NCBI GenBank assembly: GCA_020445805.1
Contig: JAGRFX010000015.1
Coordinates: 1 to 39,096, forward strand
Length of the DNA: 39,096 nucleotides
Source of the DNA: Rhodocyclaceae bacterium
GTDB taxonomy: Bacteria > Pseudomonadota > Gammaproteobacteria > Burkholderiales > Rhodocyclaceae
Reading direction: 5' to 3'
The stretch's first letter is position 1, and each line of letters begins with the position of its first letter. Position numbers and translations under genes: made by a program. The notes beneath the pieces were generated by a model. It was not told where the DNA came from and ran no database searches. It saw nothing but the letters and a program-made list of their open reading frames with translations. This document shows, piece by piece, positions 698 through 37,367 of this stretch.

Positions 698-1639
698 ATG
701 GCCAACCTCATCTGGATGCAGACTGGCGCCTGCAGCGGCGACAGCATGTCGCTGCTGACCGCTGACGGTCCGTCGATCGAGGGACTGATCCGCAGCGGCG
801 CCATCCAGCTGCTCTGGCATCCTTCCCTGACCGACGCGCCCTCCGGGCACTTTTCCCGCCTGGTCGAACGCGTCGAATCGGGCGAGCTGGCCCTCGACAT
901 CCTGTGCATCGAAGGCAGCATCGTCACGGGACCCTACGGTTCCGGGATGTTCGACAGCCACCGCGGTCGTCCCAAGATGCAGATCGCGGCCGCCCTGGCG
1001 GCCCGTGCCCGTACCGTGGTGGCGGTGGGCACCTGCGCGGCCTTCGGCGGCGTGCACGCCGCGCCCCCCAACCCTTCCGACTCGATCGGCCTGCAGTACG
1101 ACCACGCCGACCCGGGCGGCCTGCTTGATGAGCACTGGCGCTCCGGCGACGGCCGGCCGGTGATCAATCTCGCCGGCTGTCCGGTCCATCCGCTGACCAT
1201 CACCCGGACCCTGGCAATGCTGGCCTCCGGAACGCCCTTCGAGCTCGATTTCCTGAACCGGCCCAAGGTCTTCTTCTCGTCCACGGTGCACCAGGGGTGC
1301 ACGCGCAACGAGTACCACGAGTACGACGTGGAGGACCACGAACCGGGCGGCAAGGCCTGCATGTACTTCAACCTTGGCTGCCAGGGGCCCAGCACGCTGG
1401 CCAACTGCAACGCCGAACTGTGGAACAACCGCAGCAGCAAGACCCGCGCGGGGGTGCCGTGCTTCGGCTGCACCTCGCCGGATTTTCCCCGCGACGGCGA
1501 CCTGTTCAGCACCGACAAGATCGGCGACGTGCCGGTGACGCTGCCGATGGGCGTCTCCCGGGCCCGCTACATGGCCTACAAGAACCTGGCCAAGGCCGCC
1601 GCCCCGGTACGACTGGTCAAGCGCGAGATGGAGCCCTGA
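698..1639 (+). CDS. [NiFe] hydrogenase small subunit, group 2-like, no Tat signal
   Basis: 313 aa. This is the electron-transfer subunit of a cytosolic [NiFe] hydrogenase. It starts directly with the flavodoxin-like domain and has no Tat signal, as in group 2 (HupS/HupU-type) enzymes. Proximal-cluster ligands: C12 followed by S-G-D15 where most families have a second Cys, then Cys in AVGTC and NLAGC. Distal cluster: HQGC plus two Cys in ACMYFNLGC. Medial cluster: Cys in NCNAELW and both in PCFGC. The SSKTRAGVPCFGC stretch closely resembles cyanobacterial HupS (group 2a). Start: the ATG at 698 has GGAG about 10 bases upstream and fits the family N-terminus; an in-frame start at 650 would add an unrelated leader. 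The large subunit begins 2 bases after the stop. The Asp at position 15 is notable (see findings). The exact HydDB subgroup is not settled. Confidence 0.93.
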   Translation: MANLIWMQTGACSGDSMSLLTADGPSIEGLIRSGAIQLLWHPSLTDAPSGHFSRLVERVESGELALDILCIEGSIVTGPYGSGMFDSHRGRPKMQIAAALAARARTVVAVGTCAAFGGVHAAPPNPSDSIGLQYDHADPGGLLDEHWRSGDGRPVINLAGCPVHPLTITRTLAMLASGTPFELDFLNRPKVFFSSTVHQGCTRNEYHEYDVEDHEPGGKACMYFNLGCQGPSTLANCNAELWNNRSSKTRAGVPCFGCTSPDFPRDGDLFSTDKIGDVPVTLPMGVSRARYMAYKNLAKAAAPVRLVKREMEP

Positions 1640-1641
1640 GC

Positions 1642-3177
1642 ATGGCACGCCGAACCCTGGGCATCGACCTGAACCGGGTCGAGGGCGACCTCGAGTTCGA
1701 GGTGGATCTGGAAGACAACCGGATCGTGAACGCGCGCTGCATCGGCACCCTGTTCCGCGGCTTCGAGCAGCTGCTGGTGGACCGCGCCCCCCGTGACTCG
1801 CTGGTGATCACGCCCCGCGTCTGCGGCATCTGCGGCACCGCCCACCTCTACACCGCGGTGCTGGCGCTGGAACGCATCGGCCAGCTGGCCGTGCCGCCGC
1901 AGGCCACGCTGATCCGCAACCTCTGCCTGATGGCCGAGAACGTCCAGAGCGACCTGCGCCAGACCTTCCTGTTCTTCGTACCCGATTTCCTGAATCCGCG
2001 CTACGCCGGCCATCCACTGGCGGCCGAGGTGGCGCGGGCCTTCCAGCCCATGAAGGGCAGCGCGGTCGTCGGCGCGCTGGGGGTGACCCGCAAGATCCTG
2101 CAGGTGGTCGCCATTTTCGGTGGCCAGTGGCCGCATTCCTCCTACATGCTGCCCGGTGGCGTGACCCGGGGCGCCAACGAGCGGGACATCGTCGACTGCC
2201 GCGAACTGGTCGAATCGACCATCGCCTGGGTCGAGGATGCCGTCCTCGGAGACCGGCTCGAAGCCTTTCTCGACCTGGACTCCCTGCCGGCGCTCGAGCG
2301 CTGGCTGGCCGAGCCCGCCCGGGCGGGCCTGGCCCTGCCCCTGTTCTGCGCTTTCAGCCGGTCGATCGGCCTCGATCGCATCGGCGGCGGCGCCCGGACC
2401 TTCCTGTCGGGTGGCAGCTACCACGACCCGGAGGCCTGGGGGCCCCCTTACGGCGACCAGAAGACCCTGCTGGCGGCGGGCATCTTCGACGCCGACGACG
2501 GCAGCCTGGCGCCATTCGACCCCGACCGGGTCAGCGAACACGTCAGGCACTCCTGGTTCCGGCCCTACGAAGGCGGCCGGCACCCCTACCAGGGCGAGAC
2601 GGTTCCCGACTACCAGCCCGGCACCGACCGCTATACCTGGGCCAAGGCACCCCGCTATGGCGAGCAGGTCGTCGAGACCGGCCCCCTGGCCGAACTGCTG
2701 GCGGCGGGCGATGCCCTGTGCCGCGACATCGTGGCATCGCTGGGTCCGAATACCTGGCTGCGGCAGTTTGCGAGGCTGCGTCGCGCGGCGCGCGTGCTGC
2801 TGCTGATGCGGGAACACGTGGAAGCGCTGGGGCGCCGGATCGGCGAACCCCATTATCTCCACCCGGCAGCCGATACGCTTTCCGATGGGGATGGATTCGG
2901 CCTGGTCCAGGCGGCGCGGGGCACGCTGGGACACTGGGTGCAGATCCGTGACGGGCGCATCGCCCGCTACCAGATCGTCACCCCCACGGCCTGGAACGCC
3001 TCGCCGCGCGACAGCGCCGGGCGCCACGGACACTGGGAGCAAAGCGTCATCGGACTGGAACTGGCCGACACCGAGGATCCGGTCGAGCTCGGACACATCG
3101 TGCGCTCCCACGATCCCTGCCTGGTCTGCACCGTGCATTTCGCCGGGAGCGGAAAACGGATTCGCTATGGCGTATAG
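1642..3177 (+). CDS. [NiFe] hydrogenase large (catalytic) subunit
   Basis: 511 aa. The active-site subunit, which oxidises H2 at a NiFe(CN)2CO centre. L1 motif: RVCGICGTAH with C61 and C64. L2 motif at the C-terminus: DPCLVCTVH with C493 and C496, so all four Ni/Fe-binding cysteines are present. The N-terminal NRVEG segment matches the conserved RIEG region. Twelve residues follow His499, which looks like a short cleavable tail, and a maturation protease gene follows. The L1 motif ends in His as in catalytic hydrogenases; from memory, HoxC/HupV sensors have Gln there, so this is not a textbook HupV. The ATG at 1642 follows the small-subunit stop by 2 bases, implying translational coupling. 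The stop overlaps the protease start by 11 bases. No hyp maturation genes are in the window. Confidence 0.95.
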   Translation: MARRTLGIDLNRVEGDLEFEVDLEDNRIVNARCIGTLFRGFEQLLVDRAPRDSLVITPRVCGICGTAHLYTAVLALERIGQLAVPPQATLIRNLCLMAENVQSDLRQTFLFFVPDFLNPRYAGHPLAAEVARAFQPMKGSAVVGALGVTRKILQVVAIFGGQWPHSSYMLPGGVTRGANERDIVDCRELVESTIAWVEDAVLGDRLEAFLDLDSLPALERWLAEPARAGLALPLFCAFSRSIGLDRIGGGARTFLSGGSYHDPEAWGPPYGDQKTLLAAGIFDADDGSLAPFDPDRVSEHVRHSWFRPYEGGRHPYQGETVPDYQPGTDRYTWAKAPRYGEQVVETGPLAELLAAGDALCRDIVASLGPNTWLRQFARLRRAARVLLLMREHVEALGRRIGEPHYLHPAADTLSDGDGFGLVQAARGTLGHWVQIRDGRIARYQIVTPTAWNASPRDSAGRHGHWEQSVIGLELADTEDPVELGHIVRSHDPCLVCTVHFAGSGKRIRYGV

Positions 3178-3613
3178 CACGCATATCGTCTGCTTCGGCA
3201 ATGAGCTGCACGGTGACGACGGCTTCGGTGCCGCCATGCACGCCGCCCTTGCCGATCGCGTGCTGCCGCCCGGCATCCGCCTGATGCGGGCCGATGCGGG
3301 CAGCCCTGGGGCCATCGATTGCTTCGACGGCTGCGAGTCCGTGGTGGTGGTCGATATCCTGAGTGGCTTCGGCGAGCCGGGCACGGTCCATTGCCTGCCG
3401 GGCGAAGCCCTGCAGCCGGAGGAGACGGCGGCCCACGGGGCCGGGATCGGTCGTCTTCTGGAGACCGTGCGCAGCGTGCTGGACCAACCGCCACGGGTTC
3501 AGGTGGTGGGGGTCGAGGCGGCCCGGATCGACGCGTTCTGTCCGGGTCTGTCCGGGCCGGTGGCCGCAGCGCTGCCGGCCGCCACCCGCAGGGTGATGGC
3601 CTGCCTGCCATGA
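3167..3613 (+). CDS. Hydrogenase maturation endopeptidase (HupD/HycI family)
   Basis: 148 aa, close to the family's usual 150-160. These proteases recognise nickel in the large subunit and remove its C-terminal tail to close the active site. GNELHGDDGFG (11-21) is the signature motif. E13, D63 (VVDIL) and H90 (AHGAG) match the three metal-contacting residues known in HybD (E16, D62, H93). The gene overlaps the large subunit by 11 bases and the kinase gene by 4 (ATGA), so all four proteins are probably made from one transcript. Its presence argues that the large subunit is processed and catalytically competent, unlike regulatory hydrogenases that lack a tail and a dedicated protease. Confidence 0.9.
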   Translation: MAYSTHIVCFGNELHGDDGFGAAMHAALADRVLPPGIRLMRADAGSPGAIDCFDGCESVVVVDILSGFGEPGTVHCLPGEALQPEETAAHGAGIGRLLETVRSVLDQPPRVQVVGVEAARIDAFCPGLSGPVAAALPAATRRVMACLP

Positions 3614-5685
3614 CCACACCGCGCTCGATCATCATCCCGATCAAGGAGGTGACCCCCGTCGTGGGGCAGGACAGGCGCTGGTGCGGGCACATCCAGGTAC
3701 CGGGTCGCACGCACGAGACCCACGTCCTGATTCTCGAGCGCGGCGGGCGGCTGGTGGGCATTCCGGCCCTCTGTCCCCACGACGGCAGCCGGATGGACCG
3801 CTGCCGCAGCGACGAGGACGGCAACCTGATCTGCGGCGCCCACGGCCTCAAGGTGCCGGTGGAATCCAATGTCGAGTCCTTCGAGGTCGAGAAGCGCGAC
3901 GGGCAGTACTTCTTGCAGCGCAACGACACCGTACCGTCCTTCGGGGACCATGACGAAGCATCTCGCCTGCGCGATGAGCTCAATGCCCTGCGCGAGGCCA
4001 ATTCGGTGCTGGAGGCGCAGGTCACGACCATCAGCGAGGTCATGGACGGCATGATCGCGGAGCTGTCCGAGAAGTCCGGTCAGCTCGAGCGCCGCAGCCG
4101 GGAACAGGCTCGCCTCAGTCGCTTCGTGGACAACGTCGTGAACAGCATGGAGAACCTGCTGGTGGTCCTCGACGGGCGGGGACAGATCAATCAGATCAAC
4201 GCGGCGGTCACCCGCGAGCTCGGCTTCCAGCACAGTGACGTCATCGGCAAGCCCAGCGATGTCCTGCTCTCCGAACAGAGCCTCGAATCCCTCCGGGCGG
4301 CAAACCAGGACGCCAACCTGCCCACCGGACTGAACCTCTTCCGCACCATTCTCGATCGGGGCCAGCTGGCGTTTGAAGCGACGCTGGCCCACGCCTCGGA
4401 GAGCGGAACCGGCAAACATTTCATCATCCGCGGAACGCCGCTCTACGAGCGCAGCGGCAAGCTGGAAGGGGCGGTCGTGGTGGCGTCCGACATCACGCGC
4501 CTGCGGGAACGCGAGAACGAACTGCTGTTGAGCGAACAGCGGTTCAGGGACTTCAGCGCAGTCTCGTCCGACGGCTTCTGGGAAGTGGACCAGGCGATGA
4601 ACTTCATACGGCCGGTGTTCGGCCGCGCAGAGCTGATCGGCTGCAGCGTGTTCTCGATCGCACGCAAGGAGACCAAGGCGCAGAAGGCGGCGCTCAAGGG
4701 AATCGAGGCGGTGCTGGCGCATCATGAGGAGTTCCGTGACTTCGAGTTCCAGCTGCAGGATCCGGTCGAAGGCTGGGACTGGCTCAGTTCGAGCGGCCGA
4801 CCGGTGTTCGATCTGGACGGTCGCTTCACCGGCTATCGGGGCACCATCAAGAACATCACCCAGCGCAAGAATGCGCAGGAAGAACTCCAGTTGCACCGGG
4901 ATCACCTGGCGGAGCTCGTGGCGAGCCAGACCGCCGACCTGCTGGCGGCGAAGGAGCAGGCCGAGCGGGCCAACCAGGCCAAGAGCGAATTCCTGGCCAA
5001 CATGTCCCACGAGTTCCGCACGCCGCTTCACGGGATCGGCTCATTTGCGTCCCTCGGCATAAAGAAGGTGGATTCGGCGCCACCCGAGAAGCTGCGCGCC
5101 TACTTCGAGAGCATCGTGAAGAGCGGCAACCGGCTGGGGGAGCTGGTAAACGACCTGCTCGACCTGGCCAAGCTCGAGGCGCGCCAGATGAAGCTGCAGC
5201 TGCAGCCCACCGACGTCCGCGAGCTGGTTGCCATCATCGCCCAGGACTTGCGGGCCCTCACGGACAGCCGCCAGGTCATGCTGCGGGTCGCCACCGCAAC
5301 CCATGACACCGGCGCCCTGATCGACCCACGCCAGTTCCATGCGGTGGTTCAGAACCTGGTCTCCAACGCGGTCAAGTTTTCGCCGGCCTGCAGCGAGATC
5401 GTCATTTCCTTCGGCGATGGCGAACTGGCCGACGGCCGCTCGGCCCTGCGCATGTGCGTGCGCGACCAGGGAGTCGGCATTCCCGAGAACGAGGTCGAAA
5501 CGATCTTCGACAAGTTCGTGCAGAGTTCGAAGACCAAGACCGGCGCGGGCGGCACGGGCCTGGGCCTGGCCATCACCCGCGAGATCGTGCATCTTCACGA
5601 AGGTGAGATCTCCGCCGGCAACCATCCCGACGGTGGGGCGGTCTTCACCGTGCTGGTTCCCAGGCGTCAACGCCCTCCCGCGTAG
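3610..5685 (+). CDS. Rieske-PAS-PAS histidine kinase, cytoplasmic, hydrogenase-linked
   Basis: 691 aa, no membrane segment. Domains in order: a Rieske-type [2Fe-2S] domain at about 5-105, with ligands C55-x-H57 and C75-x2-H78 separated by 17 residues (the classic CxH-x15-17-CxxH pattern); a heptad-like coiled coil at about 115-170; PAS1 at about 172-290, ending in the usual DITRLRERE linker; PAS2 at about 305-425, ending DITQ-like ([12 protein letters not shown]); a second coiled coil; HisKA with phospho-acceptor H467 in MSHEFRTPL; and HATPase_c with the N-box [10 protein letters not shown]619 in DQGVGI and GGTGLGLAI. No receiver domain is fused and no response regulator lies next door. The ATG overlaps the protease stop (ATGA). 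I infer that electrons from the hydrogenase reduce the Rieske centre and change kinase activity. The alternative is a general redox or oxygen sensor that merely shares the operon. Confidence 0.92.
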
Positions 5686-6767: not shown

Positions 6768-7325
6768 TTACTTCACCCGGTTGCGATATTCGTCCGTCCG
6801 CGTGTCGATCTCGATCTTGTCGCCGATCTCGACGAAGGCCGGCACCATCAGCTCGAAGCCGGTCGCAAGCTTGGCCGGCTTGAGGACCTTGCCCGAGGTG
6901 TCGCCCTTGACGGCCGGCTCGGTATAGGTGACTTCGCGAACGACGCTGTTCGGCAGTTCGACGGAAATGGCCTTGCCGTTGTAGAAGACCACCTCGCAAG
7001 CCAGGCCGTCCTCGAGGTACTTGAGGGCGTCCTCCATGTTCTCGGCCTCGACCTCGTACTGCTCGTACTCGGCATCCATGAACACGTACATCGGATCGGC
7101 GAAGTAGGAGTAAGTGACCTCCTTGCGCTCCAGAATCACCTGCTCGAACTTGTCGTCGGCCTTGTAGACCGTCTCGGACGGGGCGCCCGTGAGCAGGTTC
7201 TTGAGCTTCATCTTGACGACGGCGGCGTTACGACCCGATTTGTTGTACTCGGCCTTCTGCACCACCAAGGGGTCGGATCCGACCATGATGACGTTGCCCG
7301 AGCGAAGTTCCTGTGCGGTTTTCAT
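6768..7325 (-). CDS. efp: Elongation factor P, Arg32 (rhamnosylation-type)
   Basis: 185 aa, full length for EF-P (188 in E. coli). EF-P binds between the ribosomal P and E sites and relieves stalling at consecutive prolines. The KOW-like N-terminal domain opens [10 protein letters not shown]. The modified loop reads KSGRN with Arg at position 32, the residue glycosylated by EarP, rather than the Lys34 of EpmA-type EF-P. The middle and C-terminal OB domains (VYNG-type loop, [17 protein letters not shown]) are intact. Start: the ATG at 7325 gives the standard N-terminus; an upstream in-frame codon at 7355 would add ten unrelated residues. earP lies directly upstream, so the modifier and its substrate are adjacent. 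A good promoter sits in the earP 3' end. Confidence 0.97.
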
Positions 7326-7380
7326 GCGGTTTCCTGACTGATCTTCCCGGGCCATCCCGGTTTAAACTGGATAACCCGTC

Positions 7381-7407
7381 ATTATACATGCGCTTTTGAA
7401 AGTTCAA
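7381..7407 (-). promoter_or_regulatory. Putative sigma-70 promoter of efp
   Basis: A perfect TATAAT (7386-7381) overlaps the earP stop codon. TTGAAC (7407-7402) lies upstream with a 15-base spacer, or TTGA with 17 bases to the -10. A leader of about 50 bases would precede efp, letting efp be transcribed independently of earP. Confidence 0.55.
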
Positions 7408-8554
7408 CCAGGCTCCCGGCAAGCTCCGGACCAACGGCCAGCACCTCGCTCCACCGGCGGGTGGCCGCCGCCAGCGCTGGCAGCTTGTGCAGGAAACCGG
7501 TCCAGTCACCCTCGCCGCCGTCTGTGCCGTTCCAGGCCTGCAGGGACGACAGGTAGGTCCCGGGCAGGCCCGCCGGCGCCACGCCGCGGGCAAACGCGGT
7601 CGCCAGCGCTGCGACCTTGTCCAGGTGGGCATCGTCAGGCTGAACATAGGCCTGCCAGAGAAACGGACGGGCCGCCCACAGCGCGCGCACGAGCGAATCC
7701 TCGCCCCGGACGAGATTGAGATCGCAGGCCCACAGCAGCTGGTCGAAGCGGTCCTGGGCCATGAAAGGAACCCGGACCACCCGCAGCGCGCCGACCACGG
7801 CGCTGTCTCCGGGTCTCGCCAGCGGTGATCCGGCCCATGCGGCGACCTGGGTTGCGCTGCGATCTTCGGGCACCACGACGGTCCAGGGTGACTCATCGCC
7901 GGCCATCACATCGAGGAGCGCAATCGCTGCCGGGTTTTCGTAGCCGAAGAGACAGACCCGCCGCTCAGCTCCAGCCGGTGCGTCGAGACCCAGGCCTTGC
8001 CAGAAGGCGGCCTGAGCGTCGGGGTCGGCAGTGAACGCGTCGCGACGCGCCAGGAGCCCCGACTCCCGCAGCAGGCCACCGGTCCCGCCGGTGAATCCCG
8101 GAAAGACGAAAACCTTGTCGAGCCCCAGCTCGGGGTGGCGGGATACCAAGCCATGACACCCCTCCACCCAGGGTTCAGCGCTCAGGTATTCGAGGTTTAT
8201 CCACAGGCGACGCCGCCCATCGCTCGCCATCTGTCTGGAATAGCCTTCCGGAAGTTCACAGGCGAAGGCTTCGATCACGACAGCCGTGGTCGCCTCAGGA
8301 ATCAGGCTGCTGCACCAGCGTATCACCCGGAAAGGTGCGCCAATTGGCGATTCAGCAGCGATCGCCGTCGGCTCGTCCATGCGCTGCAGCAACTCCGGCT
8401 GGTCGGTGATGAGGCGGACAGCGATGTCGTGATCGCGCGCCAGGCTGAGGCACAAGCGCCGGCAGACACCGATATCCCCGAAGTTATCCACAACACGGCA
8501 GAACACGTCCCAGGTCGGGCGCGGGTCGGGACGGGTCTCGGCCAGAGCACTCAC
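7382..8554 (-). CDS. earP: EF-P arginine rhamnosyltransferase EarP
   Basis: 390 aa from the GTG at 8554, near the usual 370-390. EarP is an inverting GT-B glycosyltransferase that moves rhamnose from dTDP-rhamnose to Arg32 of EF-P. The N-terminal signature is WDVFCRVVDNFGDIGVCRRL with D23 and D27 (the catalytic-site Asp pair), and the C-terminal RGEDSLVRALWAARPFLWQ carries the conserved Glu and nucleotide-binding residues. The start has GGAGGG about 9 bases upstream; the in-frame extension to 8677 is Arg/Gly-rich and non-homologous. The next gene is the matching Arg32 efp. Oddities: the coding sequence contains two exact TTATCCACA 9-mers (8197-8205, 8484-8492), one using the rare codon ATA. 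Confidence 0.95.
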   Translation of the reverse strand: MSALAETRPDPRPTWDVFCRVVDNFGDIGVCRRLCLSLARDHDIAVRLITDQPELLQRMDEPTAIAAESPIGAPFRVIRWCSSLIPEATTAVVIEAFACELPEGYSRQMASDGRRRLWINLEYLSAEPWVEGCHGLVSRHPELGLDKVFVFPGFTGGTGGLLRESGLLARRDAFTADPDAQAAFWQGLGLDAPAGAERRVCLFGYENPAAIALLDVMAGDESPWTVVVPEDRSATQVAAWAGSPLARPGDSAVVGALRVVRVPFMAQDRFDQLLWACDLNLVRGEDSLVRALWAARPFLWQAYVQPDDAHLDKVAALATAFARGVAPAGLPGTYLSSLQAWNGTDGGEGDWTGFLHKLPALAAATRRWSEVLAVGPELAGSLVELSKAHV

Positions 8555-8782
8555 GTGCGCGCGCCCTCCGCGCCAGATCGAAGGCCGCAGCGACGTACCA
8601 CCCGCCCGGCCGTTGCGCCATCCACAATTCGCCCCCAGGCTATCCACACCATTTCCAGTGCACAATCCACGTCGCAATCCCCTGATTTATTGACTGAAAT
8701 TCAAGTAATACACAGGAAAATCCAAGCCTCGATACCATTGTGCACCCCGCACACACGCCAGCATGCACGCAACGGACAGACC

Positions 8783-36629: not shown

Positions 36630-36668
36630 CCCCGCGGTTGCCGGATCGTGGAGGTGGAATCGAAGACC

Positions 36669-37367
36669 ATGGCCGATATCCTGGTGGTCGAGGACGAGGC
36701 CGACATCGCCAACCTGGTGCGCCTGCACCTGGAGATGCTCGGCCATCGTGTCCTGTGCTGCGACACGCTCGCCTACGGCCGGCGTGCCCTGGAGAGTCGC
36801 GAGTGGGCCCTGCTGGTGCTCGACCTGTCCCTGCCCGACGGGGACGGGCTCGGGTTCTGCCGGGCCCTGCGCGACGCCGACGCGGCGCTGCCGATCCTGA
36901 TGCTGACCGCCCGAAGCAGCGAACACGACCGGGTCCGCGGCCTGGAGACGGGCGCCGACGACTACCTGGCCAAGCCCTTCGGCGTGCTGGAGCTGCAGGC
37001 GCGGGTGCGCGCCCTGCTGCGGCGCGCTTCCCTGCTCGAGCCGAGCGCGCCGGTGGGGCCGCTCGAGGTACCACCCCTGCGTCTCGATCCGGCCCGGCGG
37101 GCCGCCACACGGGATGGCGAGGCCCTCGAGCTCACGGCGACCGAGTTCGACCTGCTGGCCTTCCTGGCCCGGCAGCCCGGCGTGGTCTTCAGCCGGCAAC
37201 AGCTGCTGTCCGAAGTCTGGGGCTACCACCACGAAGGCTACGAGCACACCGTCAATTCCCACATCAACCGGCTGCGGGCCAAGATCGAGCGCGATCCGTC
37301 CCACCCGCGGCTGATCCGGACCGTGTGGGGCGTGGGCTACACGCTCGACGTGTCGGAGGCCGCGTGA
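36669..37367 (+). CDS. OmpR/PhoB-family response regulator
   Basis: 232 aa. Receiver domain with the acidic pair DE (residues 9-10, VVEDEADIAN), phospho-acceptor Asp in LVLDLSLPDGDG (about residue 53) and Lys in LAKPFG, then a winged-helix DNA-binding domain (ELTATEFDLLAFLARQPG, VNSHINRLRAKIERDP, IRTVWGVGYTL). ATG at 36669 gives the standard MADILVVEDE; an upstream GTG at 36648 is less likely. GTGA overlap with the kinase. Probably controls the spondin pair, among others. Confidence 0.95.
   Translation: MADILVVEDEADIANLVRLHLEMLGHRVLCCDTLAYGRRALESREWALLVLDLSLPDGDGLGFCRALRDADAALPILMLTARSSEHDRVRGLETGADDYLAKPFGVLELQARVRALLRRASLLEPSAPVGPLEVPPLRLDPARRAATRDGEALELTATEFDLLAFLARQPGVVFSRQQLLSEVWGYHHEGYEHTVNSHINRLRAKIERDPSHPRLIRTVWGVGYTLDVSEAA

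What the first reader, a model, noticed from the sequence alone, without database searches (positions are those of the whole stretch)
698..5685. Candidate H2-sensing module: [NiFe] hydrogenase feeding a Rieske-domain histidine kinase
Small subunit, large subunit, protease and a soluble kinase are translationally coupled (2-base gap, 11-base overlap, 4-base overlap). The kinase begins with a complete Rieske [2Fe-2S] ligand set (C55, H57, C75, H78), then PAS-PAS-HisKA-HATPase, with no membrane segment. Known H2 sensors (HoxBC-HoxJ/HupUV-HupT) couple to a PAS kinase without an Fe-S domain of this kind, and HydDB lists group 2 hydrogenases proposed to act with histidine kinases. A fused Rieske domain would give a physical electron wire from the small subunit's distal cluster to the kinase, so kinase output could report H2 oxidation rate or redox state. 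I do not know of a described system of this exact architecture.
Basis: partly seen in the sequence, partly recalled or inferred. Interest (0 to 1): 0.88.

Follow-up and report, generated by a model that had tools for sequence, protein, structure and literature searches.

The report
H2 sensor with a Rieske-domain kinase
A soluble hydrogen-splitting enzyme is encoded in one operon with a signalling kinase that carries its own iron-sulfur domain, so this bacterium may pass electrons from hydrogen gas straight into a signalling protein; this is a testable variant of a little-studied class of proposed hydrogen sensors.

Summary
Sequence and fold searches agree on Rieske. By tree the hydrogenase goes with HydDB group 2c ('diguanylate cyclase-linked, putative'), not 2a or 2b. 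Of 80 related loci, 70 had a classifiable partner gene: 37 kinases (15 fused to the protease) and 33 GGDEF/EAL proteins; 26 of the 70 carry a complete Rieske motif, 44 do not. The constant part is a coil plus PAS. In a scan of 297 family genomes all 12 Rieske-coil proteins sit beside this hydrogenase, but three of the 12, from one genus, have lost one or both histidine ligands. So an H2-sensing module is well supported by gene content (not by any assay); the electron wire is plausible, unproven and not universal. I found no description of Rieske-kinase or Rieske-GGDEF hydrogenase partners in the open-access text searched. New variant of a known kind.

The parts
698..1639 (+). [NiFe] hydrogenase small subunit, group 2c type, begins at the first cluster motif without a signal peptide; cluster ligands (assigned by alignment and recalled positions): proximal C12, D15, C113, C161, distal H198, C201, C221, C228, medial C237, C255, C258
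1642..3177 (+). [NiFe] hydrogenase large subunit; L1 RVCGICGTAH, L2 SHDPCLVCTVH, 12-residue C-terminal extension
3167..3613 (+). hydrogenase maturation protease (HycI family)
3610..5685 (+). soluble histidine kinase, 691 aa: Rieske - coil - PAS - (second PAS, weak) - HisKA - HATPase; no receiver domain found in it
3625..3924 (+). Rieske domain (residues 6-105); ligand codons C55 3772-3774, H57 3778-3780, C75 3832-3834, H78 3841-3843
3949..4146 (+). long coil (residues 114-179), the part shared with partners that lack the Rieske domain
4123..4506 (+). first PAS domain (residues 172-299)
4978..5181 (+). HisKA (residues 457-524)
5323..5667 (+). HATPase_c (residues 572-686)

Best explanation
A cytoplasmic H2/redox sensor of the group 2c kind. 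The hydrogenase dimer oxidises H2; the kinase, through its coil and first PAS, is its dedicated partner; in this version the Rieske [2Fe-2S] centre at the kinase N-terminus takes electrons from the small subunit's distal cluster, and its redox state, together with docking of the hydrogenase, sets kinase activity towards a response regulator encoded elsewhere. Shown by sequence: the operon, the conserved Fe-S relay ligands, the Rieske fold and ligands, the pairing. Inferred: complex formation, cluster binding, H2 as the signal, electron transfer to the Rieske centre, the direction of the kinase response.
For: Overlapping genes. Same gene order in 5 of 61 genomes near the window's; among the rows listed (the list was cut) these 5 are the only kinase matches that begin before residue 100. 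In 70 of 80 related loci the partner is a signalling protein; checked without motifs, in 72 loci with a long enough downstream ORF the longest one is that partner in 70, starts with the same coil in L107, and is a protease ORF cut by the contig end in L119. 12 of 12 Rieske-coil proteins in 297 family genomes adjoin the hydrogenase (the window is one). All 11 relay ligands are kept in 28 of 28 Rieske-bearing rows. The large subunit has a 12-residue C-terminal extension and a protease gene, unlike five 2b examples with 0, as in catalytic enzymes. Purifying selection on the Rieske region: dN/dS 0.10, 0.26, 0.25 against three relatives (dS near 1). Precedent: HucE, a protein with a Rieske motif, is needed for H2 oxidation by the related group 2a enzyme (PMC6883350, abstract and passages), and the cytoplasmic electron acceptor of the 2b sensor is called yet unknown (PMC5665086, passages).
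Against: 44 of 70 partners lack a complete Rieske motif and the relay ligands are kept there too (43 of 43 rows, D15 being E in 10), so intact ligands do not show a Rieske wire. Three genomes of one genus keep the domain without the full ligand set. Nothing about interface, distance, potential, cluster binding or H2 response was measured. No small-subunit position tracked the Rieske state perfectly (best: S18, 27 of 28 against 8 of 43, not corrected for kinship). HucE may itself be an assembly factor, as its authors say.
Confidence: 0.5

Rival explanations
1. H2 sensing by docking and shape change (my recollection of how HoxBC-HoxJ is pictured): the coil-PAS region reads the hydrogenase; the Rieske domain is a docking or stabilising module whose cluster is dispensable.
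For: A coil model finds 41 of 44 Rieske-less partners at E<1e-3. Two Zoogloea loci (L059, L060) have no Rieske domain yet keep coil, PAS and kinase. One genus keeps the domain without the full ligand set.
Against: Both Cys and both His are invariant in 26 of 26 rows across kinase and GGDEF partners, unlikely if the cluster were idle there; but 25 of those rows were picked by the motif.
Confidence: 0.3
2. The Rieske centre is a second input (cell redox state or O2) that gates the H2 signal, not an acceptor of hydrogenase electrons.
For: Scattered presence over the tree, 5 changes on the 77 classified rows, fits an optional modulator. Fe-S redox-sensing kinases exist (chloroplast sensor kinase, PMC6949291, abstract and outline).
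Against: No Rieske-coil protein was seen away from the hydrogenase in the family scan; in the class scan only the window's own locus matched Rieske plus coil (longer ORFs with short matches were not all opened).
Confidence: 0.15
3. An energy-conserving uptake hydrogenase whose kinase neighbour is incidental.
For: Turnover-type features: C-terminal extension plus protease, His in L1; the closest solved structure is Huc, an uptake enzyme.
Against: In 70 of 80 related loci the partner is a signalling protein, 15 of them fused to the protease.
Confidence: 0.05

Closest known systems
HydDB group 2c [NiFe] hydrogenases ('diguanylate cyclase-linked, putative')
   Same: Methylobacter genomes are said to hold 2c enzymes by HydDB (PMC12810054, passages), and a Thiomargarita enzyme was called 2c with Methylobacter tundripaludum as its best match (PMC4853749, passages). 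That species' locus L067 is on the window's branch, small subunit 65% identical; that L067 is the enzyme those papers mean is my inference. L2 SHDPCLVCTVH is close to the 2c consensus quoted there.
   Different: Here the output is a histidine kinase, and the partner has a Rieske domain, which the passages I read do not mention.
Group 2b regulatory hydrogenase HoxBC/HupUV with HoxJ/HupT
   Same: Soluble hydrogenase plus histidine kinase.
   Different: 2b loci read here: no C-terminal extension, Gln in L1; HoxC needs no protease (PMC10073562, passages); kinase without an Fe-S domain (recalled). Window: 12-residue extension, protease, His in L1. The same genome also has a 2b-type large subunit (L035).
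Group 2a Huc with HucE
   Same: Closest solved hydrogenase (7uur/7utd); a Rieske partner protein.
   Different: The HucE-like protein of L165 is NifU plus a Rieske domain on its own; here the Rieske belongs to a signalling protein and its sequence looks different by eye.
Fe-S histidine kinases such as chloroplast sensor kinase
   Same: Kinase with a redox-active Fe-S cluster.
   Different: [3Fe-4S], answers to plastoquinone (abstract); no hydrogenase partner as far as I recall.

Membership tests
HydDB group 2c | places with enzymes called 2c on a tree | tested here: met
   same branch as the Methylobacter loci; the HydDB server was not run and Greening et al. 2016 was not held
HydDB group 2c | L2 motif SFDxCLVCTVH (as quoted in PMC4853749) | tested here: inconclusive
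   SHDPCLVCTVH in the window and in 75 of 78 rows in all; deeper loci L161, L163 match the quoted consensus exactly
HydDB group 2c | adjacent diguanylate cyclase/phosphodiesterase | tested here: not met
   the window has a histidine kinase; 33 of 70 relatives have GGDEF/EAL. This is a putative label of the class ('may be co-transcribed'), so the claim of membership rests on the tree alone
Group 2b regulatory hydrogenase | no C-terminal extension, Gln in L1 | tested here: not met
Group 2a Huc | SYDSCLVCTVH L2 and separate HucE | tested here: not met
   the 2a L2 was read from loci L165 and L166 only, and a HucE-like gene was seen in L165 only
Rieske [2Fe-2S] domain | CxH...CxxH ligands in a Rieske fold | tested here: met
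Rieske [2Fe-2S] domain | binds a [2Fe-2S] cluster | not testable with these tools
   needs EPR
H2-sensing two-component system | kinase output changes with H2; cognate response regulator | not testable with these tools
   needs an assay; no response regulator gene was found next to the kinase

The most novel reading that the evidence does not exclude
A signalling protein is the physiological electron acceptor of a sensory hydrogenase: electrons from H2 run through the small subunit into a Rieske centre fused to a kinase (and, in methanotrophs, to a c-di-GMP enzyme), so H2 oxidation itself is read as the signal.
Probability: 0.35. Interest if true: 0.85.

Novelty: new variant of a known kind. 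Interest (0 to 1): 0.62.

Why it matters
Where the electrons of H2-sensing hydrogenases go is open for the well-studied 2b sensor (PMC5665086 speaks of a yet unknown cytoplasmic electron acceptor). Here nature fused a candidate acceptor to the output protein, in two output types, and also offers natural controls: relatives that lack the domain or its ligands. That makes the question directly testable by EPR and phosphorylation assays.

Tried and rejected
Rieske as the universal link: rejected, 44 of 70 partners lack the complete motif. HucE as the direct source of the domain: not supported by eye; no tree was made. Covariation of small-subunit residues with Rieske state: nothing clean. His/Gln in L1 as a correlate: none simple (12 of 16 Rieske-GGDEF loci have Gln; of the kinase loci with a large subunit, one protease-HK has Gln). 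Local response regulator: none near the window kinase; the nearest receiver-like ORF is at 36648-37367; three Zoogloea loci have a receiver ORF about 2.4 kb downstream on the other strand (BLAST with receiver seeds only). The first fold search, on the 315-residue model, showed PAS/LOV-type entries in the 50 rows printed, so residues 1-110 were folded alone. Plasmid search with the domain: no match. An earlier count of 6 Rieske changes took 8 unclassified rows as Rieske-less; with those left out it is 5.

Limits: the locus scan kept the best 80 of 97 and used two peptide patterns, so it leans to the window's branch. Of the 10 unclassified loci, 7 end within 1.5 kb after the large-subunit gene, L113 has no large subunit in reach, L119 is a protease ORF cut by the contig end, and L107 begins with the coil but shows no kinase motif. 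Classes come from motifs; nine partners were checked by Pfam. Deep forks of both trees are weak. Literature searches; I saw listings, and passages of the papers cited; Greening et al. 2016 was not held, so group 2c details come from papers that cite it.

Full report
The finding reads correctly. Small subunit 698-1639, large subunit 1642-3177, maturation protease 3167-3613 and kinase 3610-5685 are all on the + strand with the stated gap and overlaps. Pfam and NCBIfam agree on the parts. The window is a whole 39,096-base contig of a 771-contig assembly; its nearest named relatives are Rhodocyclaceae MAGs.

The Rieske domain is real. Alone, the window protein scores 18.5 bits against a cut-off of 20.3. 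Homologues L067, L055 and L158 pass it, L062 does not, L049 is not listed. A 26-row profile matches Rieske ferredoxins in the PDB by sequence (best E 5.3e-5; a few unrelated coil proteins appear lower down). The AlphaFold model of residues 1-110 has pLDDT 87.5; its first 45 Foldseek rows are Rieske ferredoxins or Rieske oxygenases, though E-values are modest (best 0.0039, none at or below 0.001). The longer model shows the Rieske sheets, a helix of residues 114-179, then PAS. No hydrophobic segment of membrane type was found.

The operon is conserved. In 61 genomes around the window's, kinase matches beginning before residue 100 were listed only in G000, G002, G004, G005 and G033 (the list was cut), and all five have small subunit, large subunit, protease and kinase in that order; in G004 the kinase carries an in-frame TAG. 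G001 and G003 of the genus showed no Rieske-coil match.

The hydrogenase class. The closest solved protein is Huc, group 2a, but L2 motif, C-terminal extension and neighbours separate the window from 2a and 2b examples among 20 fetched regions. Methylobacter, which two papers connect with group 2c, has its loci on the same branch. HydDB calls 2c 'diguanylate cyclase-linked (putative)' with undetermined role (PMC5037454, passages). The window genome also holds a 2b-type large subunit with Gln in L1 and no extension, cut by a contig end (L035), and a full-length large subunit with the best family score, 718.7 bits, on C452.

What the partners are. One scan of genome contigs with the small-subunit alignment kept 80 of 97 relatives. 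For 70 a partner after, or fused to, the protease was classed by motifs: Rieske-HK 9, Rieske with truncated kinase 1, Rieske-DGC/PDE 16, DGC/PDE 17, HK 12, protease-HK 15; 10 unclassified. Because the classes were picked by signalling motifs, I checked without motifs: 72 loci have an ORF of 200 aa or more in the right place downstream, and the longest is the classed partner in 70; L107 starts with the same coil but shows no kinase motif, L119 is a protease ORF cut by the contig end. So no locus with room was seen to lack a signalling partner, with L107 unsure. Nine partners were checked by Pfam.

The trees. In the first tree, rooted at its midpoint, kinase loci and GGDEF/EAL loci fall on two sides, with 55% support. 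With deeper group 2c-like rows as outgroup, the Vibrionaceae-type kinase loci fall beside GGDEF/EAL rows on an unsupported fork, so the split by output is not firm. Rieske presence needs 5 changes on the 77 classified rows and lies in four separate lineages: Rhodocyclaceae-type kinases, methanotroph GGDEF/EAL proteins, two Sulfuricella loci, and L158. One old gain with losses and repeated gains are both open.

What stays constant. A profile of the coil finds 67 of 70 partners at E<1e-3; 41 of these are among the 44 without a complete Rieske motif, which were not in the profile. The relay ligands of the small subunit are kept in the rows of every group, except that D15 is E in some. So the coil-PAS, not the Rieske, is the common interface candidate.

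Pairing in the other direction. A Rieske-coil profile over 297 family genomes gives 14 matches at E<=1e-15, 12 of them including the Rieske part; all 12 adjoin large subunit and protease (window included). Nine of the 12 keep all four ligands. Three (G1077, G1186, G1275, one genus) do not: two have lost both His, one has lost H78 but keeps H57, while C25, C55, C65 and C75 remain. Over 369 class genomes only the window's own locus matched Rieske plus coil; 92 others matched, as listed, mostly the 50-residue cluster region, often in short ORFs, and G939 also the coil alone in a 2c locus. Longer ORFs among them were not all opened.

Mechanism. Most likely this is an H2 sensor; most of the confidence lies there. 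That the Rieske centre takes hydrogenase electrons is the best single account of a conserved cluster domain tied to a hydrogenase, with the HucE precedent, a catalytic-type large subunit and the stated view that H2 sensing needs continuous H2 activation with electron transfer (PMC10073562, passages). Against it stand the many partners without it and the genus with lost ligands. Output: no receiver was found in or next to the window kinase, so its response regulator is unknown. By the same search 15 of 15 protease-HKs and 9 of 12 other HKs carry a receiver, and none of the Rieske-HKs does.

Novelty. Group 2c H2 sensing was already proposed, so the module is a variant of a known kind; the Rieske-bearing kinase and GGDEF/EAL partners I did not find described in the searches listed under Tried and rejected. 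The protease-kinase fusions were not searched for in the literature.

Noticed in passing
L093, L095-L097, L101, L103-L106, L111, L114, L115, L120, L123, L124 (also L047:4539-7757): The hydrogenase maturation protease is fused in one ORF to a histidine kinase with a receiver in 15 of 70 classed loci, an odd coupling of enzyme maturation to signalling.
   Followed up: partly
L216, L217, L218 (L219-L221): One genus keeps the Rieske-like domain with one or both His ligands lost but four Cys kept; it may be a ligand-free docking domain or bind another cluster.
   Followed up: partly
L035:6333-7640 (contig C133 end): The window genome carries a second sensory-type hydrogenase large subunit, group 2b by motif (RICGICSVSQ, no C-terminal extension).
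   Followed up: partly
L029:6352-8739 (G004) = L048: The kinase gene of a close relative is split by an in-frame TAG; assembly error or decay not decided.
   Followed up: no
Large subunits of Rieske-GGDEF loci: 12 of 16 Rieske-DGC/PDE loci have Gln in place of the L1 His, as in group 2b sensors.
   Followed up: no
window 6768-7355 (-) and 7382-8677 (-): By eye, elongation factor P and an EarP-like modifying enzyme lie downstream of the operon on the other strand; not tested with a tool.
   Followed up: no
window 36648-37367 (+): Receiver-like ORF (E 4.5e-12), far from the kinase.
   Followed up: no
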